From Mycobacterium dioxanotrophicus (GTDB lineage: Bacteria > Actinomycetota > Actinomycetes > Mycobacteriales > Mycobacteriaceae), in assembly GCF_002157835.1 (NCBI RefSeq), contig NZ_CP020809.1:1054001-1118000 (forward strand): a stretch of DNA of 64,000 nt, in the 5' to 3' direction. Position numbers and translations under genes: made by a program. Below, in pieces: positions 13,860-26,346 of the stretch (positions are counted from its first letter, which is position 1; the number at the start of each line of letters is the position of its first letter). The notes beneath the pieces were generated by a model. The model ran no database searches and was not told the DNA's origin. It saw only the letters and a list, made by a program, of their open reading frames with translations.

Positions 13860-14086
13860 AGATCCGTGCCGTGATCGAGCTGGTGCTGGCCGTCTGCGCG
13901 GCTGCGGGGTGTGTGGTGAGCTGGCTGGCCGCCAGTACCACCGTGGACGTCGCGCCGATCCTGCCCGGTGAACCGTCGACCACGTCGGTCGTGCATTCCG
14001 CCCCGTTGCTGGTGCTGTCGTTGCTGCTGGCGACCGTCGCCGGGGTGCTCGCCGTGCTGGGCATCGCGCGGTTGCGCCGCGGCTAA
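13856..14086 (+). CDS. Small two-helix membrane protein (Rv0514-like position)
   Basis: A 76-residue protein from ATG 13856, overlapping the previous stop as ATGA. Helix one is VIELVLAVCAAAGCVVSWLA and helix two is APLLVLSLLLATVAGVLAVL, separated by a Thr/Pro/Ser loop likely outside the cell. The C-terminus is LRRG. A longer in-frame start at 13793 would lie inside the upstream gene and is unlikely. The TAA stop overlaps by three bases the stop of the convergent FAD oxidoreductase. Function unknown. Confidence 0.75.
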   Translation: MKIRAVIELVLAVCAAAGCVVSWLAASTTVDVAPILPGEPSTTSVVHSAPLLVLSLLLATVAGVLAVLGIARLRRG

Positions 14087-16893
14087 CGCTGCGGGTCGAG
14101 CCAGTCCGGCTCGGTGATCTCCGGATACGCCGACGGCGCTGCCCCAGGTTCGGGCGTCCTGGCGTAGAGCGAGCGGGGCGCAGGCGTGGACGGCGGCGCA
14201 TTCTCGGTCTCGGTGAACCGGCGATGAGCCGAACCTGCCGGTTGTCGCGGTGGCGGTGGTGGGGAGGCCGGCTCCTGCTTGGGCCGGTCCGGCTGCGGTT
14301 CGCGCCGCGGCCGAGCCCCCGCGGTGGTCTGGATTCCGTAGTCGTCGGCGGGTGCGATGACCTCCTCCCCGGGATAAGGCGGCCGGCCCGGCGGTCCGTC
14401 GCCCTCACTGGGTCGGCCCGTCGCCTCGCCCACGGTCTGCTCCAGGTAGTGCCGCCACGCCTGCAGATAGGTGAGCAGCTGCTCGGCGTAGTCGGTGGGC
14501 GCGGTCGTCACCGGGGTGCCCGGCGGGGTCAGCAGTGCACCACCCAGGCCCCCGAGCCCCGCCTGCTGCAGGTACTGCCGCCAGGACTGCAGGTAGGTCA
14601 GCAGCTGCAGGCCGGGTTCGGGCGGCATGATCGGCTGGGTCATGGATAGGCCTCCTCCGGCGGTGAGCAGCAGCGGGGCCGCGGTGTCCAGTGGGTGGGG
14701 CAGCGCCTCCCGGCAGTACTGGCCGTCGAGCGTGCGCAGGGGACGGGCGTCGGCGGGTTCGCGGTTCTCGATGTCGAAGACGTAGCAGTAGTCCCCGGCC
14801 GGGGACGGCATCCGAACGGGGCTGGAGTAGCCCTGGTCGAGGAAGTCGTAGGGGAAGCGCCAGTCCAGCGTGGTGTTCTCGCGGTGATCGGTGCCTCCCG
14901 AGGCCACCCAGATGTAGTGGTCCAGGATCGCGTTGACCGCATGGCGGGCCGATTCGCAGGCCGCCTCCATCGACGTCATGCGGGTGAACGTCTTGGTCCA
15001 GGTGCCCGCGAACACCACCGAGTTGTGGTGCACCTGGTAGCCGCCGTGCCGGGCCTGCCAGACGTTGCGCTGCCGCAGGTCCTGCAGCCAGGTCTCCTCG
15101 GTCGGCCGGGTGCCCCAGGATCCGCCGTGTGGATTCCACGGGTCCGGGCCGGGCCGGTTCTCCCAGTCGCCGACGATCGGGACCAGGTAGGGCGTCTCGT
15201 TGCGGACGGCCTTGCCGTGCCCCTGGCCGGGGCCGTCGCCCATGACCAGCCCCCGGTCGAGCGCATACCAGGTGGGCCACGGCATGAGCGCTTCGGCGAC
15301 GTTGTCGACGTCGCTGGTCAGGGCCCACACGATCTGGCGCCACACCTCGGTGGCGATCTCGTCGGCCGTGCAGTCGCGGGCCGCCTTGCCGCGCCCGGAC
15401 TCGTCGAGCAGGTACCGCGAGGGCGTGTTGAAGTCGCCGATGTCGACCGACAGCACCGAGACGTGGCCGTCGCGGGCCAGGGTCGGACGGCGTTCCCACA
15501 GCCCGTGCTGGTTGATCGACGACAGCGCCCACTCGGTGCCCGAGTAGTACATGTGGCCGCGCAGCAGCTGGAATTCGGTGTCGAAGTAGTACTGGATGCC
15601 GCCGAGTGTCTGGAACCGGTCCCACGGCACCCGACCCATCTCGTCCATGGCGTACGGGTCGCGCCGGGTCTGCGGGCGGGTGTGGCCCGGTTCCAGAGGG
15701 CCGTCGTTCGGCGGGGCCGATGTGGTGAACCCGTCGAGCTCGGCCACGGTGCCGCCCGTGCCCGCCGCGCGCAACGCCGCGGTGATCTGTTCGGCCGCCG
15801 GGGCGTCGACCGCGACGACGGTGTAGTCGGGGGTGAGCCGGGTGCCGTCGGCCAGCGTCACCTGCACCCGCGGCCGCAGGTGCGGCTGCTGTCCCGGATC
15901 CGACGCGGGCGGTTCGAGGCGGCCCGCGCCGGCCCGGACGAAGCGGACGCCGAGCTCGACGAGGTGGCGGTGCCAATGGTCGAACCACGATTCGGTGGTG
16001 GGGCCGTTGAGCACCCCGTCGGCCTTGTTGTCGCGGCGGTCCATCTGCAGTTGCAGTTGCAGGTAGGTGGTCAGGTTGGTGCGGGCGTCGCCCCAGCGGG
16101 TGTCGAAGGCGGCCAGGACGCGGGGCATCTCCAGCAGCAGGGAGTCGAACCGCGGCGAGTAGGCGAACCGGGGCTGTTCGGCCGTGTCGTCGCGGCCGAC
16201 GAAGAAGTCGTAGGCCGACAGGTTCTGCAGTTCGCTGGCCCGGCGCAGCGGGCTCGTGACGAGGTAACGCAGGAGCCTGCTGACGAACCGGTCGATGTCC
16301 GACGCCGTGAAACCCAGCTGGGTCAACTGGCCGGCGATGGTGAGGAATTCAGCCGGGGTGCGCGGCGCTTCGCGCGGGAAGACCAGCGACGGCTTGCCGT
16401 CCACGGTGGTGCCCTGGGTGACCACGCGCCGGACGTTGTCCATGATGGTCCGGGCGGTGGGCACCCAGTCGACTGTGCCGCCGGGGCCGTCGATGCGCTG
16501 GTAGACGGGGATCCGTTGGAACAGATCCCAGGTGTGCAGGTAGTACGCGGGGAAGAAGCGGAAGCCGTGCTCACCGGCGACGGCCCGCGCGGGTGGACGC
16601 GGGTCGCCGCGGCGGCCGGGGAAGGGCCGCAGCTCGGCGGCGCTGCCGTCGTGCGTGCCCACGGTCGAGTACTGCGAGGCGGCCAGCCCGCCGAGCTTGA
16701 CGGGCGGGTAGGTGTCGGCTGGTGCCGTGCCGAGTCCGGCGCGTTCGTCGACGTGGGGCTCGTACACCGTGACGTCGAAACCGCGCTGCGCCAGTTCGTG
16801 CGCGGCGGTCAGGCCCGCGATGCCTGCGCCCAAGACCGCGACCGTCGGGCGACGTGGGCACGACGCGGGTGTGGTGATGACCTCGCTCGTCAC
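14083..16893 (-). CDS. FAD-dependent oxidoreductase (phytoene desaturase/HpnE-like) with repeat-bearing disordered tail
   Basis: A 936-residue protein starting at GTG, overlapping the upstream stop as GTGA. The FAD-binding motif is VAVLGAGIAGLTAAHELAQR (residues 19-38), then VTVYEPH. The body to about 745 resembles amine-oxidase/phytoene-desaturase-type flavoproteins, with GEHGFRFFPAYYLHTWDLFQ near 110 and HNSVVFAGTWTKTF in the C-terminal FAD region. From about 749 the tail is Pro-rich and disordered, but holds two near-identical 15-residue amphipathic segments: LLTYLQSWRQYLQQA (764-778) and LLTYLQAWRHYLEQT (806-820). It ends EITEPDWLDPQR. Context suggests oxidation of a polyprenyl or carotenoid-like substrate; the tail could tether it to the shell-like protein. 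Confidence 0.82.
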   Translation of the reverse strand: MTSEVITTPASCPRRPTVAVLGAGIAGLTAAHELAQRGFDVTVYEPHVDERAGLGTAPADTYPPVKLGGLAASQYSTVGTHDGSAAELRPFPGRRGDPRPPARAVAGEHGFRFFPAYYLHTWDLFQRIPVYQRIDGPGGTVDWVPTARTIMDNVRRVVTQGTTVDGKPSLVFPREAPRTPAEFLTIAGQLTQLGFTASDIDRFVSRLLRYLVTSPLRRASELQNLSAYDFFVGRDDTAEQPRFAYSPRFDSLLLEMPRVLAAFDTRWGDARTNLTTYLQLQLQMDRRDNKADGVLNGPTTESWFDHWHRHLVELGVRFVRAGAGRLEPPASDPGQQPHLRPRVQVTLADGTRLTPDYTVVAVDAPAAEQITAALRAAGTGGTVAELDGFTTSAPPNDGPLEPGHTRPQTRRDPYAMDEMGRVPWDRFQTLGGIQYYFDTEFQLLRGHMYYSGTEWALSSINQHGLWERRPTLARDGHVSVLSVDIGDFNTPSRYLLDESGRGKAARDCTADEIATEVWRQIVWALTSDVDNVAEALMPWPTWYALDRGLVMGDGPGQGHGKAVRNETPYLVPIVGDWENRPGPDPWNPHGGSWGTRPTEETWLQDLRQRNVWQARHGGYQVHHNSVVFAGTWTKTFTRMTSMEAACESARHAVNAILDHYIWVASGGTDHRENTTLDWRFPYDFLDQGYSSPVRMPSPAGDYCYVFDIENREPADARPLRTLDGQYCREALPHPLDTAAPLLLTAGGGLSMTQPIMPPEPGLQLLTYLQSWRQYLQQAGLGGLGGALLTPPGTPVTTAPTDYAEQLLTYLQAWRHYLEQTVGEATGRPSEGDGPPGRPPYPGEEVIAPADDYGIQTTAGARPRREPQPDRPKQEPASPPPPPRQPAGSAHRRFTETENAPPSTPAPRSLYARTPEPGAAPSAYPEITEPDWLDPQR

Positions 16894-17291
16894 GGCACCG
16901 CCTCCCTCAGCGCGGAGAGCAGCCCCGGCAGTGCCGGTGCCCGGACGGCGGCGTGCACGTAGGCCAGCAGGGTGTCGTGCACCTGCAGGATGTCGTCGAG
17001 CGAGCCGTCGACGGTCACCGTGCCCGCCTGCACGGCGTCGTGCAGCCCGATGCGGGCGTCGAGCACGTCGAGGATCGCGCCGCGCGACGTGGTGATCCGC
17101 GGGCCGCCGGACACCGGGCCGTCGGCCACCTCGAGGCGGGGCCCACCGCGCAGCACGAACTGTTCGCCGTCGACGTCGAGTGCGACCACCAGCGCCCCGA
17201 GCCGGTCGAGCACCAGGCGGTAGCTCTCGGGTACCTCGTCCGCGAGATGCCCGACCGACCGGCGCAGCAGCGCCGCCACCGGCTCAGCCAT
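16890..17291 (-). CDS. SCP2-like lipid-binding domain protein
   Basis: A 133-residue protein (MAEPVAALLRRSVGHLADEV). The middle reads VVALDVDGEQFVLRGGPRLEV, RITTSRGAILDVLDARIGLHDAV and GTVTVDGSLDDILQVHDTL. This order of strand, long helix and strand ending in a VDGSLDDIL segment is the pattern of SCP2/sterol-transfer-like domains in bacterial operons. It could hold or present a hydrophobic substrate for the adjacent enzymes. It overlaps the CrtC-like stop by 8 bp and the oxidoreductase start by 4 bp. The assignment is by eye. Confidence 0.65.
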   Translation of the reverse strand: MAEPVAALLRRSVGHLADEVPESYRLVLDRLGALVVALDVDGEQFVLRGGPRLEVADGPVSGGPRITTSRGAILDVLDARIGLHDAVQAGTVTVDGSLDDILQVHDTLLAYVHAAVRAPALPGLLSALREAVP

Positions 17292-18294
17292 GAAGAAACT
17301 CGAATACGCCGGTGCCGGTGAAGTCGATGGCTTCGCCGTTGACGGACCCGGTCATCCGGGTGGTGCCGCTCGCCTCGCACAGCACGGTCGAGCTCTCCAG
17401 GCTGACCTCGCTGGGGTGGGCCAGCCGGGCGTAGGACTGGGGTCGGAACTCGGCGTGGATGGTGTCGCCCGCCCGGGTGGCGCCGAGTTCGACCTGCTCG
17501 GGGACGCCCGGCACGTCACCGTCGATCAGCAGCCGCATCGGCGGGGGCAGGGTGCAGTCGGGCGCCCGGCCCAGCCGCCCCGACGTGCGGATGCGCACCT
17601 CCGCATGCCGGAAGATCACGGCGGGCTCGTCATGGCGCCACACGTAGAGCGCCTGCGACAGGAACCGCAACCGGTGCCGGTCGGTCATCTGCAGCAACAC
17701 CGCCGACCACGGGTCGCCGGGCTCGACCGGCAGGATGGTGCCCCACGTCCAGCCGAAGTCGTCGCCCCACCGGAACCGGCCCCAATTGTGGTCGTGATAC
17801 GCCAGGTCGGAATCCAGCCGATGCTCCCGGCCAGCGATGTGCAGCCACCCGTCGGCCCGCAGCCTTGGCACGAACAGCCACGACATCCGGCCCTGCCCGA
17901 CGGGCTGGTTGTTCACGGCGAACGGTCGGCTGACCGGGGTGAGACGCACCTCCCCGCTGACACCGGGCAGGTCGACGAGCACCTCGTAGCCGTCGGGCCG
18001 CACGGTCATGCGGTTGGCGCCGATGGCGCACGCCCCGAGATCGGCGGAGATGTCCAGGTCCGTCTCGGCGAAGCGTTCGACGGCCCCGGTCCACTGGCGG
18101 TCGTGGGCGATGACGATGACGCGCGGCACCATGCGGGTGCACCCGTTCGGGGTTTCTTCGCAGGTCAAGCTGAAGTTGATCAGGAAGCGGCCGGTGCGTC
18201 CGTGGACCACGAAGTGGTGCCACTCCTTGAAGCCTGTGGGCTGGGCGGCGGCCAGCACCGGGGCCCGCAGGAAATCACTGGCCGCCAGCGTCAT
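17284..18294 (-). CDS. CrtC/AttH-type lipocalin-like enzyme (carotenoid 1,2-hydratase-like)
   Basis: A 336-residue protein from ATG 18294 (MTLAASDFLRAPVLAAAQPT), which overlaps the upstream stop as ATGA. A GTG three codons upstream is possible. Residues EWHHFVVHGRTGRFLINFSL open the fold. The segment LAYHDHNWGRFRWGDDFGWT near residue 170 is the His-rich signature of the CrtC/AttH superfamily, whose members hydrate or cyclise unsaturated isoprenoids. A second lipocalin-like domain ends in the sequence GVFEFLHG. Together with the polyprenyl synthase and FAD enzyme it suggests terpenoid tailoring. The exact reaction is unknown. Confidence 0.75.
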   Translation of the reverse strand: MTLAASDFLRAPVLAAAQPTGFKEWHHFVVHGRTGRFLINFSLTCEETPNGCTRMVPRVIVIAHDRQWTGAVERFAETDLDISADLGACAIGANRMTVRPDGYEVLVDLPGVSGEVRLTPVSRPFAVNNQPVGQGRMSWLFVPRLRADGWLHIAGREHRLDSDLAYHDHNWGRFRWGDDFGWTWGTILPVEPGDPWSAVLLQMTDRHRLRFLSQALYVWRHDEPAVIFRHAEVRIRTSGRLGRAPDCTLPPPMRLLIDGDVPGVPEQVELGATRAGDTIHAEFRPQSYARLAHPSEVSLESSTVLCEASGTTRMTGSVNGEAIDFTGTGVFEFLHG

Positions 18295-18548
18295 CGCAGC
18301 CACCTCGCTGAGGAGTCGGGTGCCGCACCGGCCCGCGCCGGCGGCAGGGGCGGGGCGAGCCGTTCCACCCGAGCGCCCAGGGCTGCCAATCCGAGTAGCA
18401 CGTGCACGAAGTCGTCGGCGTCCCGCCGTTCGCTGCCGCCGGTGCCCAGCGTGCGGACGAGTCGGCCCAGGCCCGCCAGGCCTACCAGATAGTCGATCAG
18501 GCCGGCGTTCTCGGCCAGTGCGGGACGCGCATCGTCCAGCCTCGTCAT
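18291..18548 (-). CDS. Unrecognised 85-residue helical protein
   Basis: The protein starts MTRLDDARPALAENAGLIDY at ATG 18548, coupled by ATGA to the upstream gene, and its stop overlaps the next start the same way. Its middle, YLVGLAGLGRLVRTLG and DDFVHVLLGLAALGARVERL, is two amphipathic helices; the end is Pro/Ala-rich. I do not recognise a family. Tight coupling on both sides argues that it is translated and belongs to the operon, perhaps as a small accessory or assembly factor. Confidence 0.6.
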   Translation of the reverse strand: MTRLDDARPALAENAGLIDYLVGLAGLGRLVRTLGTGGSERRDADDFVHVLLGLAALGARVERLAPPLPPARAGAAPDSSARWLR

Positions 18549-19006
18549 GCGAACCCCTCGGGGCGCAAGCGGGCCAGCACCGGATCGTCGGCGCGCGAGG
18601 CCCCGATGATCGCGTCGGCGAGCAGCTCGATCCAGGCGGTCGGCGCGGCGGCAGGTGACGCCGGACCGTCGAGCACGTTGAGGCTCACGGTCTCCCATAC
18701 CCGCCGCAGGTTCTCGACGGCCGCGGACGTGGTCAGTGCGTCACGCAGCCGCGCCCCTTCCGGCGTCTGCGCGTAACGAACCCCCTCGGCCACCAGCAGG
18801 TCGTGCACACCGCGGGCGGCGGCGGGGTTGCCGAGCACCGCACGCCGCGCCCCGAGCAGCAGCTCGTACACCGCCCGCTCGTGCCCGCAGGCGTTCTGCG
18901 GCGGGGCGGGCAGCAGCTGCGGAGCGCTGCGCTCGACGAGGTCCAGCGTCAGGGCCCGGATCCGGTCCAACTCGGCAAGCATGCCGACCAGGGTTTCGGG
19001 CGTCAT
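18545..19006 (-). CDS. Unrecognised 153-residue helical protein
   Basis: From ATG 19006 (MTPETLVGMLAELDRIRALT), overlapping the polyprenyl synthase stop as ATGA. The sequence is mostly helical and Ala/Leu-rich: LVERSAPQLLPAPP, ERAVYELLLGARRAVLG, LVAEGVRYAQTPEGARL and AVENLRRVWETVSLNVL. No catalytic motif or membrane segment is visible. A longer in-frame start reaching 19177 would run antisense-free through the synthase gene and is not supported. Position between the synthase and the CrtC-like gene suggests a role in the same pathway or particle. Confidence 0.6.
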   Translation of the reverse strand: MTPETLVGMLAELDRIRALTLDLVERSAPQLLPAPPQNACGHERAVYELLLGARRAVLGNPAAARGVHDLLVAEGVRYAQTPEGARLRDALTTSAAVENLRRVWETVSLNVLDGPASPAAAPTAWIELLADAIIGASRADDPVLARLRPEGFA

Positions 19007-20175
19007 CGCGTGCGCCCGTGCACGTAGGCGACCAGGTCCGTGAGCATGTCGCGGTGCTGACTCGGCGGCAACCAGTCGAGGCCGGCCAGCACGGCCGCGG
19101 CGTCGCGCGCGTGGCCTGCCGCGACGTCGCGGGCGTGGGCGAGTGACCCGGTCTGGTGTAGCAGGCGGTACAGCCACCGGATGTCGTCGAGCGTCTTGGC
19201 CTCTGCATCGCGGCGGCCCAGCACTTGCGCCGCGATCGCGTCACGCCCGAAGCGGGACAGCTCGCCGCGGGCGGTGAGCCGGTCGAGCAGTTCGGCCAGC
19301 CCCAGCTCACCCCCGGCGGCGCTCGGGCGGCGCTTGAACAGGATGGCCACGGCGCGTTCGCGGTCCTCGGCGTCGGCGCGACGCAACGCGTGCAGCACCA
19401 TCAACGTCCGCTTGCCCTCCCACAGGTCGCCGCCGATCTCCTTGCCATAGTCCTGCGGATCGGCCCGCAGGTTCAGCAGATCGTCGGTGATCTGGAATGC
19501 CGCACCGAGATGGCGGCCCAGGACTTCCAGCGGTGCCAGCCGGTCGCCACCGCCGCCTGCGGCGATCACCCCGGCCTGCAGCGGGGTGATGAACGAGTAC
19601 CAGCTGGTCTTGAGCTCCACCATGCGCAGGTAGTCGGCGTCGTCCAAGCGCCAGACGTTGGACCGTACCCATTCCAGCTCGATGGCCTGGCCCTCGACGG
19701 TCTGGCGGGTCATGTGGGCGACGGCCCGCAGGACCCGCAGCGCCGGGCCGAGCCCGATGCGTTCCACATTGTCGAGGAGCGGTTGCAGTGACAGTGACAG
19801 CATGGCGTCGCCGACGTTGACGGCGATGGGGATGCCGTGGTCGATGTGCAGGGTGGGACGGCCGCGCCGGCGCCACGAATCGTCCTCGATGTCGTCGTGG
19901 ATGAGGAAGGCGTTGTGGTAGAGCTCCAAGGTCGCGGCGGTCGGCAGGACGGCATCGAGATGGCCGCCGAGCCCGAGACACGTCGCGATGCTCAGGGCAG
20001 GCCGCAGGGCCTTGCCACCGCGCAACGGGTAGTCGAGGATCAGCTCCCGCAGTCCGCTCGTGCCGTGATCGCTTGGGCCGTACAGTCTTTCGATCTCTCC
20101 GTCGCACGCCTGCTTGCACCGGGCGAGGTAGTCGTCGAGTCCCGATGTCTGCGGCAGTTCAGCGACGGCAGGCAT
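19003..20175 (-). CDS. Polyprenyl diphosphate synthase (trans-isoprenyl type)
   Basis: A 390-residue protein from ATG 20175 (MPAVAELPQTSGLDDYLARC). LRGGKALRPALSIATCLG near residue 52 binds diphosphate. The first Asp-rich motif is IHDDIEDDSWRRRGRPTLH (DDxxD at 94-98). The second reads FQITDDLLNLRAD (231 on), DDxxN rather than DDxxD, as in some geranylgeranyl diphosphate synthases; KRTLMVLHAL follows. It elongates allylic diphosphates with isopentenyl diphosphate; chain length cannot be told by eye. It starts 7 bp after the shell-like gene stop, so the two are co-translated neighbours. A longer frame to 20289 runs into that gene and is rejected. Confidence 0.9.
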   Translation of the reverse strand: MPAVAELPQTSGLDDYLARCKQACDGEIERLYGPSDHGTSGLRELILDYPLRGGKALRPALSIATCLGLGGHLDAVLPTAATLELYHNAFLIHDDIEDDSWRRRGRPTLHIDHGIPIAVNVGDAMLSLSLQPLLDNVERIGLGPALRVLRAVAHMTRQTVEGQAIELEWVRSNVWRLDDADYLRMVELKTSWYSFITPLQAGVIAAGGGGDRLAPLEVLGRHLGAAFQITDDLLNLRADPQDYGKEIGGDLWEGKRTLMVLHALRRADAEDRERAVAILFKRRPSAAGGELGLAELLDRLTARGELSRFGRDAIAAQVLGRRDAEAKTLDDIRWLYRLLHQTGSLAHARDVAAGHARDAAAVLAGLDWLPPSQHRDMLTDLVAYVHGRTR

Positions 20176-20182
20176 GGGCGGA

Positions 20183-20926
20183 TCAGAAAGCGATGCCGAC
20201 GACGCCGCGCGGATCCTTGATCCGCAGCACGTACCGGATCCGCACCGCCAGTTCGATCGCGCCGTCTGCGTTCTCGCCGATGACCTCAAGGCTGGGCGCG
20301 ACGGCGACGGCGAGGTCCACCGGCTCCTCGCCAGGAGACGCCGTCGCGGCCGCCCCCTGTGCGATGCGTTGCCGACGGCCCAGCATGATCATCCTGGTTC
20401 CGTCGACGCGGTAGACGCCGGTGACAGCGGCCGCCTTGAGCACGGCCTCGGCGATGTCCTCTCCGCTCTCGATGTGGTTGAGCCGCTTGAGGCCGTCGGT
20501 GCTGAGGAACAAGCACGACGGTGCCCGGTACCCGGCCGTCTCGACTTTGGCCCGGGCGTCGACGAGGGTGTCCAACAAGTCCTGCGTGGTGGTGCCTGCC
20601 GTCTTCAGCGGTTTGGGGTTCTCGGCTCGTAGCTTTGCCAGGACCGCGGTGTCGATCCTCGCGGCGAGCTCGACGGTCTTCGCCATCAGGACCGCCAGCA
20701 GCGGATCCGGCGTCGGCGCGCCCGCCTGCGCGAGTGTCACCGCGAACTTCTCGTTGAGGGTGTCGACCTCGAGAAAGCCCGGCGGAATGGTGTCGCTGCG
20801 GACCCAGGTCTGCCCGGGATCGCCGGTGTCCCAGTGCGGGATCGCCTGCCAGGCAACGCTGGTCTGTTCGAACGTCTCGCGTACGGCCCGGTCGGCCACG
20901 GCCAACCGCTCGGCGCTCAGGTACAT
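20183..20926 (-). CDS. Encapsulin-like HK97-fold shell protein (candidate)
   Basis: A 247-residue protein starting MYLSAERLAVADRAVRETFE. By eye its order of elements parallels family 1 encapsulins and HK97 capsid proteins. An N-terminal helix (1-25) and extended loop come first, then a spine helix PDPLLAVLMAKTVELAARID (73-92), the helix DLLDTLVDARAKVETAG (116-132), the strand YRAPSCLFLSTDGLKRL (133-149) like the capsid A-domain, VTGVYRVDGTRMIMLG (168-183), and the C-terminal beta segments VDLAVAVAPSLEVIG and AVRIRYVLRIKDPRG. No portal, terminase or protease gene is near, so this is not a prophage. It would form a compartment for the downstream terpenoid enzymes. Structure prediction is needed to confirm it. 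Confidence 0.6.
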   Translation of the reverse strand: MYLSAERLAVADRAVRETFEQTSVAWQAIPHWDTGDPGQTWVRSDTIPPGFLEVDTLNEKFAVTLAQAGAPTPDPLLAVLMAKTVELAARIDTAVLAKLRAENPKPLKTAGTTTQDLLDTLVDARAKVETAGYRAPSCLFLSTDGLKRLNHIESGEDIAEAVLKAAAVTGVYRVDGTRMIMLGRRQRIAQGAAATASPGEEPVDLAVAVAPSLEVIGENADGAIELAVRIRYVLRIKDPRGVVGIAF

Positions 20927-21001: not shown

Positions 21002-24000
21002 CTACTTCTGCGCGAGTGCGACGTCCTGACCAGGGGACATGTCGCCGCGGGCGACGGCATCGCAGTGCGCGAGGTGCAGCGTGGCGACGGTGTCCTCGGG
21101 CAGCAGCAGGCGGCATTTTTCGAACGCGGCCCGCGCCCGCGCCGCGTCGCCCGCGTCGAACAGGCCGAACGCCTCGTCGAACATCGGTGCCGCCGCGCGT
21201 TTCGCGTCCCGCAGCGGGGCCGGATCCTCGTCGTACACCTCGTAGATGGTCACCGGCCGGCGCCGGTTGACCACCATCACGCGCTCCATCCGGCGGATCG
21301 CGAACTGGCCTCGCGCGGCGAGGCGCGCGTAGGTCGCGTCGGAGATGAGCAGCGCGGTGCCGTAACGCTTGTTGGTGCTCTCGATACGTGCGGCGACGTT
21401 CACGGCGTCGCCGATGATGGTCAGGACCATGCGGTTGACGCCGCCGACCAGGCCCACCCCGACCGGCCCGGTGTTGATGCCGATGCCGACCTGCAGCTCT
21501 TCCGATCCGTGCGCGAGCCGGTCGCGGTTGTGCTCACGCAGCGACCGCAGCATCGCCAGGCCGCCTCGGACGGCGTCGGTTTCGGATTCGAACACCGCGA
21601 CGATCTCGTCACCGCGGACGTCCTGGATCATGCCGTTGCAGCTGATGATCGGCAGCTCGACGGCGCGCAGGAACCCCATCGCCAGATTGCTGGCGTCGGA
21701 GACGTTCATGTCCTCCAAAAGGGTTGTGTAGCCTCGGATGTCGGAGATCAGCACGGTCATCTCCCGCTCGACGCGGTAGCCGCTGTGCACGCGGCGCAGA
21801 TCGTCGATGTCGAGGATGCGCAGCAGCTCGTTGGGCACGAACTTGGACTGCGCATCCATCAGGGAACGGCGGTATTCGTCGGCGGCCTGCAGCTGCGCCT
21901 CGAGCTGGAAGTTCCACATGGGCGCGGCGGCCTGGTCGCACACGAACGAGACGGCTTCTTCGTGATGTGCGCCGAAATGTTGTGCTGGGTCGCCATGTTC
22001 GGCATAGACCATGCCGATGATGTTGTCCTGCAGGCGAATCGGTGCGGCCAGTGCCGACGGCACCGGGCGGCGCATGCCGTTCGGCCCGGGCCGCCGGCTC
22101 GAGTCGGCGGCCACGATCAGCGGCGTGCCGCAGTCGACGACGCGGCGCACCAGGGTGCGGTCGTAGGCCACTTCGGTCCATGGCCCGTCGACGGTCGTGA
22201 TCTCGCCGCCGTCGAGCACGGTCCGCACACTGAGATGCTCCGGCTCACCGGTGAGCAGCAGGACGCGGTGGGCACCGGTGGTGTCGGCGACGGTCCGAAG
22301 CACGATATCGGCCAGACTGTCCGCGCTGCGCGCCGCGGACAGGGCCCGTGCCAGATGGTGGGCGCCGGCCGGATCGATTCCTGCCGAATCCGGCGTGACG
22401 AGGTCGCGGCTGAGCAGCCACGGATGGGCGTGGGCCAGCCGCTCGGTGCGCAGCGTGAGCCCCAGAGTCGAGAACCGCTGATATGCCGTGCGCAGCATGT
22501 GCTCGCTGAGCCGGTTGCGGCCGGTGTCGGCGTAGAGGATGGCGGCTTCCTCGTGGGCCGCCGCGGCGATCAGCGGCAGCTGGTGCTCGTCGGCCAGTTC
22601 CATGGCGCGGTGCAGGGCGAGTTCGGCGGTCTGGTGCCTGCCGCGGGCGTGTGCCCAGGTGCCTTCGATCAGCGCGCAGGGCGCCGCGTAGTTGGCGGGG
22701 GATTCGGCCGCCCACTTGCGATGCAGTGCCAGGGCGCGGTGTGCGCAGCTGCGGGTCGACCGGGCGTTCGGTGCGACGTGGATGCGGCTCAGCGCGCTCG
22801 TCAGGTGTACGAGCTGCATGATGGCGGTGCCCTCCATGCCTGCGATGTGTGCCAGTGCGTCGTCGGCGACCTCGACGGCCCCGGCGTAGTCACCGGCCCA
22901 GAAGTGCAGGCCGAGGCGCATCGTCGCGGCCGCCCCGAGGGCCACCTCGTCGCCTTCGCGGCGGGCCGCGGGTAGGGCCACCCGCTCGTCGTAACCACTC
23001 TCGCCGGCCAGCAGGAACGGATCCTCGCTGCGCCCCATCATGTTCAGGCAGATCTGCTGGACGGCTTGGCACAGGCCACGGGGGACCGGCTGCGACCAGA
23101 TCTCGGGGATCAGGGTCTGGGCGAGTTCGTCGATCTCCGCCAGTGGCCGGCCGATCCAGAAGTACTGCGAAAGTAGTACGGCGCCAAGGAATCCCGCGTA
23201 TTCCTGGTCGCCGTGGTCGAGTGCCTCGGTCACCGCGTCGCGTAGTTGACCGAAGCCGTCGCGCAGTGGGTGGCGCCAGTGCCGGATGAAGTTCAGGTGC
23301 ATGAACAACGTCTCCGGCCGGGCGTCGCGGAACTCGGGTCTTTCGGTGAGCAGCAGTGCGGTCTCACCGAACCGTTGCGCGCCTGCGCGGTCCCCGGTCA
23401 GCACCAGCAGCACTCCGTAGCTGACGAGCACCAGGGGCAGTGACGGGGTGTGGCCGTGCGCGAGGGTCAGGTCCAGTTGCTTGCGCACGATGAGGGGAAA
23501 CAGGTTGGGCCGCGCGATGTAGGACAGGCTGCGCAGTTCGGCGAGGATGCGCTGGATCTCCACCACCCGCCGGTCCGCACACCGGGGCAACTGCAGCAGC
23601 TGGTCGGTGCTCCAGTGCCGCACCGTGAAGCGCATCCGCAAGAGCGCGTTGGCCATTCGTGGTTTGCCCGCGTCACGCGGCAGCGGCTCACCCAGCTCGT
23701 CGAGTGCCTGCAACCCGGTGTCGAGCGCCTCCTGCAGCCTGTTCTGCGCCATCCGTCCCTTGAGCCGCAGGTAGGCCAGCCGGCTGCGATCGGCCGGTTC
23801 GCGCAAGGCGGTCTCGGCCTCGTCGAGCAGTGTGTGCAGCGCTGCCACGTCGCCGACCAGCAGCGCGGCCTCGGCCGCCTCGAGCTGCAGTTCCCGCGCG
23901 ATGTCGAAGTGCCGGGTCCAACGCTCGTCGCCCAGGAGATCGAGCCCGTTGCGGCAGTACGTCAACGCCAAGGGGAATGACGCCTGCGCCCGGGCCTTGC

Positions 24001-25381
24001 GCGCTGCGCGCCGCAGCACGTCGACGAACCGGATGCGCTCGGCGTCGTCGGCCAGCGCGTGTCCGCCGATGCCGAGGTGCCGGGCGGCCTCGAACAGGCG
24101 CGCGTCGCCCAGCTCGACGAGTTGCCTACCGATCCGCAGGTGCGTCTCGCGTGCGACATCGTCGGAGAGGTTTTCGCGGGCCGCCTCGGCAACGCGGTCG
24201 TGGCTGAACCGGTAGCGGGCGTCGTGGCTGATCGTGTTGGCGATCCGCTGACCGCGGCTGTCGACGGCTTCGAGCAGTCTCAGCTCCAGGGCCGACCACA
24301 GTGCCTGCGCGACGACGTCGGTGGGCTGCGCGGCTGCCGTCGTCGCGTCGGCGAGGTCGAACTCACCCCCGATGCAGGTCAGCGTGCTCAGCACGGCGCG
24401 GTCTGCCGGGCGCAGCTGGTCGAGGTAGCGGTTGAGGAACTCGGCGGCGGAGTCGGTCACCTCGATCGAGGACAACACCCGCAGGTCCCAGCTCGGTCGC
24501 CCGCTCGCGCCGACCGGGGTGAGCGCACCTTCGCGCTGGGCGCGATACAGCAGCTGGCGCACCTGCAGCGGATTGCCGCCGGTGCGGTGATGGAATTCGG
24601 CGGCCACGTCGCCGAGTTCGACGCCGCGGCCGCAGACGGCGGCCAGCAGCTCTTCGACGGTGTCGCGGGACAGCGGCGCGAGCCGGATGCTGGACAACCC
24701 GGCCGTGGGCAGGCCGGCGCCGTTGGGATCGAATTCGCCGGCCCGGTGCGCGCCGAGCACCAGCACGTTGCGCAACGACACCGCGAGTAGCTCGGAGAGC
24801 ATCAGCAGCGAATCGTGGTCGGCCCATTGCAGATCGTCGACCGCGAGCACCACCGGCCGGTAGGAGGCGGTTTCGGAGATCAACCTGATGGCGGCGCGGT
24901 GCAGCCGGCGGCGAGGATCGGAGGGCTCGCGGTCGCCGGTTGCCGGCGGCTGCCCGAGCACCTGCCCCAGGTCGGGGACGAGCTCGGACAGGACGCCGGA
25001 CAGCGCGGCCATTCCGTTGGCGAGGTCGGCCCGCCAGCTGTCCCGTTCGGCCGGGCCGGTGGTCTCCATGGTGTGCACGATGGAGCTGAAGGCGTCTCCC
25101 AGTGCCGCATAGGGCGCCGGGGCGCCGTCGCGGCACCGGCCGTAGGCGAAGACACAGTTGCGGTCGGCAAGCTCGACACCGAAGGCCTGTATGAGGGTCG
25201 ATTTGCCCACCCCGGGGGCACCGCTGACCAGGACACACCGGCCGCCGTTGCGTTCGGCGTCGGTGATGGCGGCGCGCAGCGCGGTCGACTCCGCGGCCCG
25301 TCCGACGACGCGGCCGTCGAGGTCGAGTACCGGAGCGGTCACGGCCACCGTTCCTTCCGCCCCCCGCAAACGTGCACTCAT
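21002..25381 (-). CDS. Large AAA ATPase-TPR-GAF protein with C-terminal class III nucleotide cyclase
   Basis: A 1459-residue protein if it starts at ATG 25381 (MSARLRGAEGTVAVTAPVLD); a TTG at 25465 gives a longer, less likely form. Near residue 50 the AAA_16-type ATPase begins, with Walker A SGAPGVGKSTLIQ and Walker B VVLAVDDLQWAD. A long helical repeat region follows, then a GAF-like segment. The C-terminal cyclase domain has ISDIRGYTTLLEDM and QDVRGDEIVAVF for the two metal Asp residues, and IIGDAVNVAARIE for the transition-state Asn and Arg. Thr in place of the substrate-specifying Asp (LTIIGDAVN) is a class IIIb feature. It ends 75 bp upstream of the shell-like gene on the same strand. 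Confidence 0.88.
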   Translation of the reverse strand: MSARLRGAEGTVAVTAPVLDLDGRVVGRAAESTALRAAITDAERNGGRCVLVSGAPGVGKSTLIQAFGVELADRNCVFAYGRCRDGAPAPYAALGDAFSSIVHTMETTGPAERDSWRADLANGMAALSGVLSELVPDLGQVLGQPPATGDREPSDPRRRLHRAAIRLISETASYRPVVLAVDDLQWADHDSLLMLSELLAVSLRNVLVLGAHRAGEFDPNGAGLPTAGLSSIRLAPLSRDTVEELLAAVCGRGVELGDVAAEFHHRTGGNPLQVRQLLYRAQREGALTPVGASGRPSWDLRVLSSIEVTDSAAEFLNRYLDQLRPADRAVLSTLTCIGGEFDLADATTAAAQPTDVVAQALWSALELRLLEAVDSRGQRIANTISHDARYRFSHDRVAEAARENLSDDVARETHLRIGRQLVELGDARLFEAARHLGIGGHALADDAERIRFVDVLRRAARKARAQASFPLALTYCRNGLDLLGDERWTRHFDIARELQLEAAEAALLVGDVAALHTLLDEAETALREPADRSRLAYLRLKGRMAQNRLQEALDTGLQALDELGEPLPRDAGKPRMANALLRMRFTVRHWSTDQLLQLPRCADRRVVEIQRILAELRSLSYIARPNLFPLIVRKQLDLTLAHGHTPSLPLVLVSYGVLLVLTGDRAGAQRFGETALLLTERPEFRDARPETLFMHLNFIRHWRHPLRDGFGQLRDAVTEALDHGDQEYAGFLGAVLLSQYFWIGRPLAEIDELAQTLIPEIWSQPVPRGLCQAVQQICLNMMGRSEDPFLLAGESGYDERVALPAARREGDEVALGAAATMRLGLHFWAGDYAGAVEVADDALAHIAGMEGTAIMQLVHLTSALSRIHVAPNARSTRSCAHRALALHRKWAAESPANYAAPCALIEGTWAHARGRHQTAELALHRAMELADEHQLPLIAAAAHEEAAILYADTGRNRLSEHMLRTAYQRFSTLGLTLRTERLAHAHPWLLSRDLVTPDSAGIDPAGAHHLARALSAARSADSLADIVLRTVADTTGAHRVLLLTGEPEHLSVRTVLDGGEITTVDGPWTEVAYDRTLVRRVVDCGTPLIVAADSSRRPGPNGMRRPVPSALAAPIRLQDNIIGMVYAEHGDPAQHFGAHHEEAVSFVCDQAAAPMWNFQLEAQLQAADEYRRSLMDAQSKFVPNELLRILDIDDLRRVHSGYRVEREMTVLISDIRGYTTLLEDMNVSDASNLAMGFLRAVELPIISCNGMIQDVRGDEIVAVFESETDAVRGGLAMLRSLREHNRDRLAHGSEELQVGIGINTGPVGVGLVGGVNRMVLTIIGDAVNVAARIESTNKRYGTALLISDATYARLAARGQFAIRRMERVMVVNRRRPVTIYEVYDEDPAPLRDAKRAAAPMFDEAFGLFDAGDAARARAAFEKCRLLLPEDTVATLHLAHCDAVARGDMSPGQDVALAQK

Positions 25382-25458
25382 CGTAGTGAGCCAGGCCCGC
25401 TGGAGTGCGGCGATGAGAAACCTCGTGGAAGCCTGCCGTGAGTTGCACCACACGCCTT

Positions 25459-25490
25459 GGAACAAAGTTCAAAATTTGTAACACTGTTCC
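25459..25490. promoter_or_regulatory. Nested inverted repeat directly upstream of the mpaB-like start
   Basis: GGAACA (25459-25464) and TGTTCC (25485-25490) form the outer arms, and ACAAA (25462-25466) and TTTGT (25475-25479) the inner arms. The outer right arm ends one base before the ATG at 25492. The site is a candidate operator for the TetR protein encoded two genes downstream, and lies in the divergent gap shared with the cyclase gene. Confidence 0.4.
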
Positions 25491-25491
25491 T

Positions 25492-26346
25492 ATGACCGAA
25501 CTGGCCGAACCGTCGCAGCGGGCCGACGCCCTGCCGCTGGGCCCGCAATCGCTGGTGTGGAAGTACTTCGGCGACAACCGGATGTACCTGATCGGTCCTC
25601 GGCCCGCGGTGTTGCAGAACATGCTCGCCGAGCTCGGCCAGGGCGTGCTGGATCATTCGACGTTCTTCTCCGATACCGCAGAGCGGCTCAAACGCACTGT
25701 GCCGCCGATCTTCCGGACCGTGTACGGGGCCGAGGACGATAACGCGGGCACCCAGGTCCGCGACTTTCACCACCACGTCAAGGGCGATATGCCCGACGGT
25801 TCGCGCTACCACGCGCTGGACCCCGAGACCTACTTCTGGGCGCACGCGACATTCGTCGAGCAGGTGCTGTACTTCGCCGACACCTTCGTCAAGCGACTGA
25901 CCCGCGAGGAGAAGGAACAGATCTACCTGGAATCGAAGACCTGGTATCGCCGCTACGGCGTCAGCGACCGGCCGATGCCCGCCGACTATGCCGAGTTCGA
26001 ACGGTACTGGGACCGGATGATGAACGAGGTCGCCGTCGCCCACAAGAGCGCGCGCTACGGCGTCGGCTACGTCACCAAGGGGTTCCCGTGCCCCAAGGCG
26101 GTGCACCCGGTCGTGTGGCGGGTGGTGGCGACGGTGTTCGATCCGGTCGCGGCCTTCCTGACCACCGGTGGCCTGCCGCCCCGCGCCCGGGAGCTGCTGC
26201 AGCTGCCGTGGTCGGAGCGTCAGGAGCGCAACTATCAGCGGTTCGCCGCGTTCTGGCGGTCGGCCCCGGTCAACTGGGTGTGGGACCATCTGCCGATGAG
26301 CGTGCGCTACAACCGGTTCGCGCAGAGGGGCTATGCCCGCGGCTGA
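25492..26346 (+). CDS. MpaB-family oxygenase (DUF2236)
   Basis: A 284-residue protein starting [20 protein letters not shown]. The DUF2236/latex-clearing-protein-like core shows [20 protein letters not shown] near residue 18, [20 protein letters not shown] near 88 and [20 protein letters not shown] near 112. The His residues in these segments fit the haem b ligands of the family. Members oxidise diverse substrates; the substrate here is unknown. The upstream frame (from 25438) lacks family sequence, so ATG 25492 is chosen. The TetR gene overlaps its 3' end by 14 bp, indicating one transcript. Confidence 0.85.

What the first reader, a model, noticed from the sequence alone, without database searches (positions are those of the whole stretch)
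14083..20926. Candidate encapsulated terpenoid-modifying system
Seven minus-strand genes overlap or nearly touch. They encode a 247-residue protein whose secondary-structure order parallels encapsulins/HK97 capsids, a polyprenyl diphosphate synthase 7 bp later, two unknown helical proteins, a CrtC/AttH-like enzyme, an SCP2-like protein and a FAD oxidoreductase. No phage portal, terminase or protease is present. Family 2B encapsulins are known to associate with polyprenyl synthases and terpene cyclases; this shell-like protein is short and lacks the cNMP-binding insertion of that group, so it may be a distinct type. Seen: operon layout and enzyme motifs. Inferred: shell fold and compartment.
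Basis: partly seen in the sequence, partly recalled or inferred. Interest (0 to 1): 0.9.

Follow-up and report, generated by a model that had tools for sequence, protein, structure and literature searches.

The report
Encapsulin-like shell in a terpenoid operon
A mycobacterial operon pairs a predicted virus-like shell protein with enzymes that make and modify terpenoids, which suggests a small protein compartment for that chemistry; no shell has yet been seen in the laboratory.

The parts
21002..25465 (-). cyc: AAA_16 + GAF + class III cyclase protein (1487 aa from the TTG listed; true start unsure)
   Evidence: Pfam; next to cap in the fetched loci, inverted at the far side in Pseudonocardia
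20183..20926 (-). cap: 247-aa shell protein, encapsulin/HK97 fold, Family-1-like
20810..20926 (-). cap residues 1-39: N-helix and WQAIPHWDTGDPGQ segment, where Family 1 shells form part of the targeting-peptide pocket
   Evidence: conservation 0.93 (1-4), 0.79 (5-22), 0.92 (24-39) in 120 homologues; Family 1 role from PMC8346489 section 12
20393..20407 (-). cap residues 174-178: loop that holds insertions of up to about 100 residues in homologues
   Evidence: alignment A1; conservation 0.41
19003..20175 (-). pps: trans-polyprenyl diphosphate synthase, 390 aa
   Evidence: polyprenyl_synt 194.8 bits; nearest PDB chain a geranylgeranyl diphosphate synthetase; both acidic motifs in 43 of 43 by loose patterns
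18545..19006 (-). h153: 153-aa protein of unknown family
   Evidence: no Pfam/NCBIfam match; found with cap
18291..18548 (-). h85: 85-aa protein of unknown family
   Evidence: no Pfam/NCBIfam match; conserved in loci
18294..18305 (-). h85 C-terminal RWLR, candidate docking peptide behind a variable linker
   Evidence: W[LIM]R at the end in 37 of 42, FLR in 3 more
17284..18303 (-). CrtC/AttH-type enzyme, 339 aa
16890..17291 (-). SCP2-like protein, 133 aa
   Evidence: SCP2 in 7 of 10 members, best E 0.0032; none in the window's own protein at E 1
14083..16893 (-). fad: FAD-dependent oxidoreductase, 936 aa, with C-terminal tail
   Evidence: NAD_binding_8, Amino_oxidase, DAO over cut-off; homologues
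14086..14706 (-). tail module of fad (207 aa), a separate downstream gene in other genomes
   Evidence: 22% proline beyond its first 60 residues
14566..14595 (-). tail repeat 1, YLQSWRQYLQ
14440..14469 (-). tail repeat 2, YLQAWRHYLE
   Evidence: YLQ.W[RQ]..LE in 36 of 40 genomes, none in 300 shuffles
14161..14181 (-). APRSLYA, candidate shell-docking peptide
   Evidence: SL[FY] in the last 110 residues in 32 of 40

Best explanation
The operon encodes an encapsulin-type nanocompartment of a new sequence family, with a fold closest to Family 1, given over to isoprenoid chemistry. Shown by computation: the fold and the conserved gene block. Inferred: Cap subunits assemble into an icosahedral shell; the polyprenyl diphosphate synthase makes a prenyl diphosphate (by homology); the FAD oxidoreductase and the AttH/CrtC-type enzyme oxidise and hydrate, eliminate or cyclise the prenyl product or a compound that bears it; the SCP2-like protein carries the hydrophobic intermediate (weakest call). 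The FAD enzyme is held at the shell by a proline-rich tail with amphipathic YLQAWR helices and a short APKSLFS-type peptide, in cis where fused and in trans where it is a separate protein; the 85-residue protein may dock by its terminal RWLR. The cyclase next door probably regulates the system.
For: Encapsulin fold: with a gap to phage capsids. Eight-gene block in 41 of 43 loci. h153 matched strongly only in Cap-bearing genomes, 7 of 150; CrtC-like close matches only in 6 Cap-bearing of 150. Gene distances correlate, r 0.64-0.77, shuffled maximum 0.30. Purifying selection on cap, dN/dS 0.25-0.42 in 4 comparisons. No relatives found in phages, plasmids or IMG/VR at the sensitivity used. Tail motifs and at least 7 fusion/split changes. 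Terminal [W/F]LR of h85 in 40 of 42. AttH fold of the CrtC-like protein.
Against: No assembly or cargo data. The tails share only the SL core with the Family 1 targeting peptides read in PMC10960027, 8 of 40 genomes lack SL[FY] in the last 110 residues, and one clade of 7 has another end motif. pps has no obvious tag. The Family 1 profile is weak in 1 of 29 members (E 0.13) and absent in the rest; profile-profile comparison failed. Genomes of one genus are not independent, and correlated distances show co-inheritance, not contact.
Confidence: 0.68

Rival explanations
1. Cap forms a shell, but the enzymes work outside it, on its surface or on a membrane or lipid body, with the particle as scaffold or product store; the tails bind the outside or a lipid surface.
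For: Tail helices look amphipathic; the tail can be a separate protein; an SCP2-like carrier and prenyl products suit lipid surfaces.
Against: The most conserved parts of Cap, residues 1-4 and 24-39, fall where Family 1 shells bind cargo peptides inside (PMC8346489); h85 and the tail have the linker-plus-peptide layout of cargo.
Confidence: 0.17
2. It is a strongly diverged Family 2B system that lost the cyclic-nucleotide domain, its cyclase gene being the relic of that link.
For: Polyprenyl synthase partner; the Family 2 cargo model scores it 172 bits; a cyclase gene adjoins.
Confidence: 0.08
3. Cap is a domesticated HK97-fold protein that no longer makes a closed shell and acts as an oligomeric scaffold or in some other role.
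For: Cap diverges fastest of the genes compared (mean pairwise identity 0.51 against 0.65-0.77).
Against: The full fold is predicted over 1-247 and the gene is under purifying selection.
Confidence: 0.05
4. It is the major capsid gene of a decayed prophage that happens to lie in the operon.
For: HK97 fold; weak PHROG 283 match, E 0.006; viral capsid models match from E 3.9e-11.
Against: Same context in 41 of 43 loci; no phage relatives found; portal and terminase matches only elsewhere in the genome; selection; higher Z to encapsulins than to the phage capsids listed.
Confidence: 0.02

Closest known systems
Family 1 (classical) encapsulins, PF04454, such as M. xanthus EncA
   Different: 18% identity; PF04454 reached only E 0.13 in 1 of 29 members; partners are terpenoid-type enzymes, not the peroxidases and ferritin-like proteins listed for Family 1 in PMC8346489 section 7.
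Family 2B encapsulins with polyprenyl transferase or terpene cyclase cargo
   Same: Polyprenyl synthase and tailoring enzymes in the operon; a cyclic-nucleotide connection of some kind.
Family 3 (natural product) encapsulins
   Same: Shell gene among biosynthetic genes.
   Different: No PF05065 match to Cap at E 1 in 29 members; no NRPS, PKS or sulfotransferase among the operon proteins; membership by sequence to the Myxococcus seed was not tested.
AttH/CrtC superfamily (AttH, CghA, Phm7, kievitone hydratase, 25-phosphosteroid lyase)
   Different: 10-14% identity; reaction and substrate unknown.

Membership tests
Encapsulins in general | HK97-fold shell protein | tested here: met
   Predicted model; encapsulins fill the top of two PDB comparisons
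Encapsulins in general | Self-assembly into icosahedral shells | not testable with these tools
   Needs expression and microscopy
Encapsulins in general | Dedicated cargo loading | tested here: inconclusive
   Conserved candidate tails, binding untested
Encapsulins in general | Not part of a phage | tested here: met
   No phage relatives found; portal and terminase families only elsewhere in the genome
Family 1 encapsulin | Match to PF04454, the model used to collect Family 1 in PMC8346489 (section 15) | tested here: not met
   No match in the window's protein; 1 of 29 members at E 0.13
Family 1 encapsulin | Elongated N-terminal helix, no extended N-arm | tested here: met
   Helices 5-22 and 24-28, no arm before them; aligned from residue 1 in most Family 1 rows
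Family 1 encapsulin | Known cargo class (DyP, ferritin-like) | tested here: not met
   None among the operon proteins in Pfam
Family 2B encapsulin | cNMP-binding domain in the shell protein | tested here: not met
   No such Pfam match; 247 residues fully spanned by the HK97 fold
Family 2B encapsulin | Polyprenyl transferase cargo above the NCBIfam f2_encap_cargo4 cut-off | tested here: not met
   172.4 bits against 450
Family 2 encapsulin | Match to PF19307 (SrpI-like) | tested here: not met
   No match at E 1 in 29 members
Family 3 encapsulin | Relation to the Myxococcus seed or PF05065 | tested here: inconclusive
   No PF05065 match at E 1 in 29 members; seed not compared
AttH/CrtC superfamily (for the 339-aa enzyme) | Two-domain beta fold of AttH and relatives | tested here: met

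The most novel reading that the evidence does not exclude
This is a further encapsulin family in which the targeting signal is a detachable subunit: a tail of two amphipathic YLQAWR helices plus a shell-binding peptide brings a terpenoid-modifying FAD enzyme into the shell, and evolution has repeatedly switched between fusing it to the enzyme and making it as a separate protein. A nucleotide cyclase encoded next door sets the system by signal, where Family 2B carries the nucleotide sensor in the shell itself.
Probability: 0.35. Interest if true: 0.85.

Novelty: new variant of a known kind. Interest (0 to 1): 0.74.

Why it matters
If true, terpenoid compartments exist with two quite different shell types, one of them with the Family 1 fold, so far described as a peroxidase and ferritin-like cargo class (PMC8346489, section 7). 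The shell escapes the family models used here; at least 640 relatives scored E 0.01 or better, and names among the 120 listed are mostly 'hypothetical protein'. The natural split between fused and separate tails makes cargo recruitment directly testable, and a separate tail protein would be a handy tool for loading enzymes. The product could be an undescribed isoprenoid.

Tried and rejected
Profile-profile comparison (hhalign) of Cap with Family 1, 2A, 2B and phage-capsid alignments gave probabilities of 0.1-0.4%. In the same call Family 1 against 2A and 2B also failed (0.4%, 0.7%), while Family 1 against phage capsids reached 63%; ORFs were untrimmed and alignments shallow, so I count it neither way, though the Cap/Family 1 alignment ran in the expected register. 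PDB sequence searches with Cap and its profile found no encapsulin.

A weak Cap match in genome G369 (E 6.9e-4) falls in a small frame beside hemB and was dropped as chance: 8, not 9, of 397 genomes count. A weak h153 match in G122 (E 6.6e-4, a stop inside) was dropped from the 8. Distant CrtC-like matches in two genomes without Cap (26-27% identity) show that the enzyme family also exists outside the system. Clustering all ORFs around the loci was spoiled by antisense frames and supports nothing here. A genome search with FAD gave no usable answer and was replaced by a protein search (1090 at E 1e-10 or better, 120 listed). FAD substrate could not be assigned; PDB matches cover only its first 100 residues or fewer.

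Counts drop rows as follows. Motif counts: 40 genomes, L059 left out, L024 added by its last 250 residues. Tree: 40 genomes, L035, L049 and L059 left out; three of the 20 'separate' (L039, L052, L056) were called by a looser rule, and L033 holds a masked stretch.

Literature: nine searches listed no paper that I could see describing this shell or operon; I saw listings and abstract starts. In PMC8346489 I read sections 7, 9, 12, 15, part 1 of section 8, the abstract and passages; in PMC10960027 and PMC12407261 passages only. Supplements could not be read.

Full report
What was checked. The seven genes exist as described at 14083-20926 on the minus strand. The window lies at 1.054-1.118 Mb of an 8.08 Mb genome; by Cap the nearest named records are Mycobacterium aquaticum (93%), Mycolicibacterium brisbanense (89%) and kin. 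75 bp upstream of cap stands a gene for an AAA_16, GAF and class III cyclase protein, read the same way.

Not a phage remnant. No relative was found in 50,697 phage or 72,556 plasmid records at E 1, nor confirmed among 16 pattern matches in IMG/VR. Portal and terminase matches in this genome lie at 2.37 and 6.25 Mb, beside other capsid genes. Cap is under purifying selection, dN/dS 0.25-0.42 in 4 comparisons, looser than pps (0.07-0.19) and FAD (0.12-0.15). Its mean pairwise identity over 40 genomes is 0.51, against 0.77 for pps and 0.75 for the FAD core.

The system. Of 43 loci fetched by Cap from named records, 41 hold matches to all eight genes; L035 and L060 end within the block, and in L059 (M. 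lepraemurium) several matches are partial. In Pseudonocardia eucalypti the cyclase gene is inverted beyond the FAD gene. The hemB flank is seen in five near relatives only, so the block sits elsewhere in others. Cap was found in 8 credible of 397 genomes of the order, own included, and in 6 of 396 of the phylum, all one genus. h153 was matched strongly in 7 of 150 genomes, all Cap-bearing. Distances of cap and six other genes correlate, r 0.64-0.77, shuffled maximum 0.30; this shows shared descent. The genome also has a Linocin_M18 (Family 1) and an SrpI-like (Family 2) encapsulin gene, so this is a third shell gene.

The tail module. After its core the window's FAD enzyme has 207 residues with repeats YLQSWRQYLQ and YLQAWRHYLE, a stretch with 22% proline, and APRSLYA near the end. 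In other genomes the module is its own gene just downstream. Of 40 genomes 20 are fused and 20 separate; a FastTree tree needs at least 7 changes. YLQ.W[RQ]..LE occurs in 36 of 40, in no shuffle; SL[FY] in the last 110 residues in 32 of 40, against a shuffled mean of 0.96 and maximum of 5 in 300. Seven genomes, one clade in the tree, carry [FY][KRA][GA]LxxR instead, and one of them SLY as well. The Pseudonocardia protein keeps YLQAWRQYLEQ, GSAF and SLYS. Near relatives are not independent, so the counts overstate the evidence. h85 ends in W[LIM]R in 37 of 42 and FLR in three more. Family 1 targeting peptides quoted in PMC10960027 (passages) are SGSLNIGSLK, GGDLGIRK, GSLGIGSLR, SHPLTVGSLRR and TVGSLIQ; open frames beside the Family 1 genes of two relatives, presumably DyP, end near GSLAIGSLK and GSLGIGSLK after proline-rich linkers. 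The layout is alike; the letters share only the SL core. That our tails dock to the shell is inference.

Relation to the known. It has the Family 1 fold without the Family 1 sequence model or cargo, and a 2B type of partner without the 2B shell. PMC8346489 collected Family 1 by PF04454, Family 4 by a Pfam model, and Families 2 and 3 from sequence seeds (section 15); such searches may have missed this family, but its supplementary list could not be read. So I file it as an encapsulin-type shell of a new sequence family, not as Family 1 or 2B.

Certainty. Fold about 0.95; dedicated gene block about 0.97; closed shell about 0.8; isoprenoid enzymes inside about 0.65; tails as docking signal about 0.5; separate tail as trans-acting adaptor about 0.35. 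The best-explanation confidence of 0.68 covers a shell serving these enzymes, not every inferred step.

Noticed in passing
21002-25465: In the cyclase domain the usual purine-site lysine (recalled: K-x-x-G-D) is aspartate in all 36 of 43 sequences that the pattern could read, and the second purine-site residue is T or S; metal-site and transition-state motifs remain. Product nucleotide is therefore unclear.
   Followed up: partly
25438-26346: Divergent plus-strand gene beside cyc looks like a DUF2236/MpaB-type oxygenase (recalled from sequence, not searched); whether it belongs to the system was not tested.
   Followed up: no
L059 10001-15411: In Mycobacterium lepraemurium best matches cover only parts of cap, CrtC-like, fad and cyc, as if the operon were decaying there; stops and shifts were not examined.
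   Followed up: no
G000:C1:6506944-6507259: Two short adjacent Linocin_M18 pieces in different frames, apart from the intact Family 1 gene at 6306057, look like a second, broken encapsulin gene.
   Followed up: no
20393-20407: Low-complexity inserts of varied length at Cap residues 174-178 in homologues, about 100 residues in P0118; role unknown.
   Followed up: partly
18545-19006: h153 has an almost fixed C-terminus, RPEGF[AV] or the like, in 38 of 43 and RPEGFT in 3 more; function unknown.
   Followed up: no
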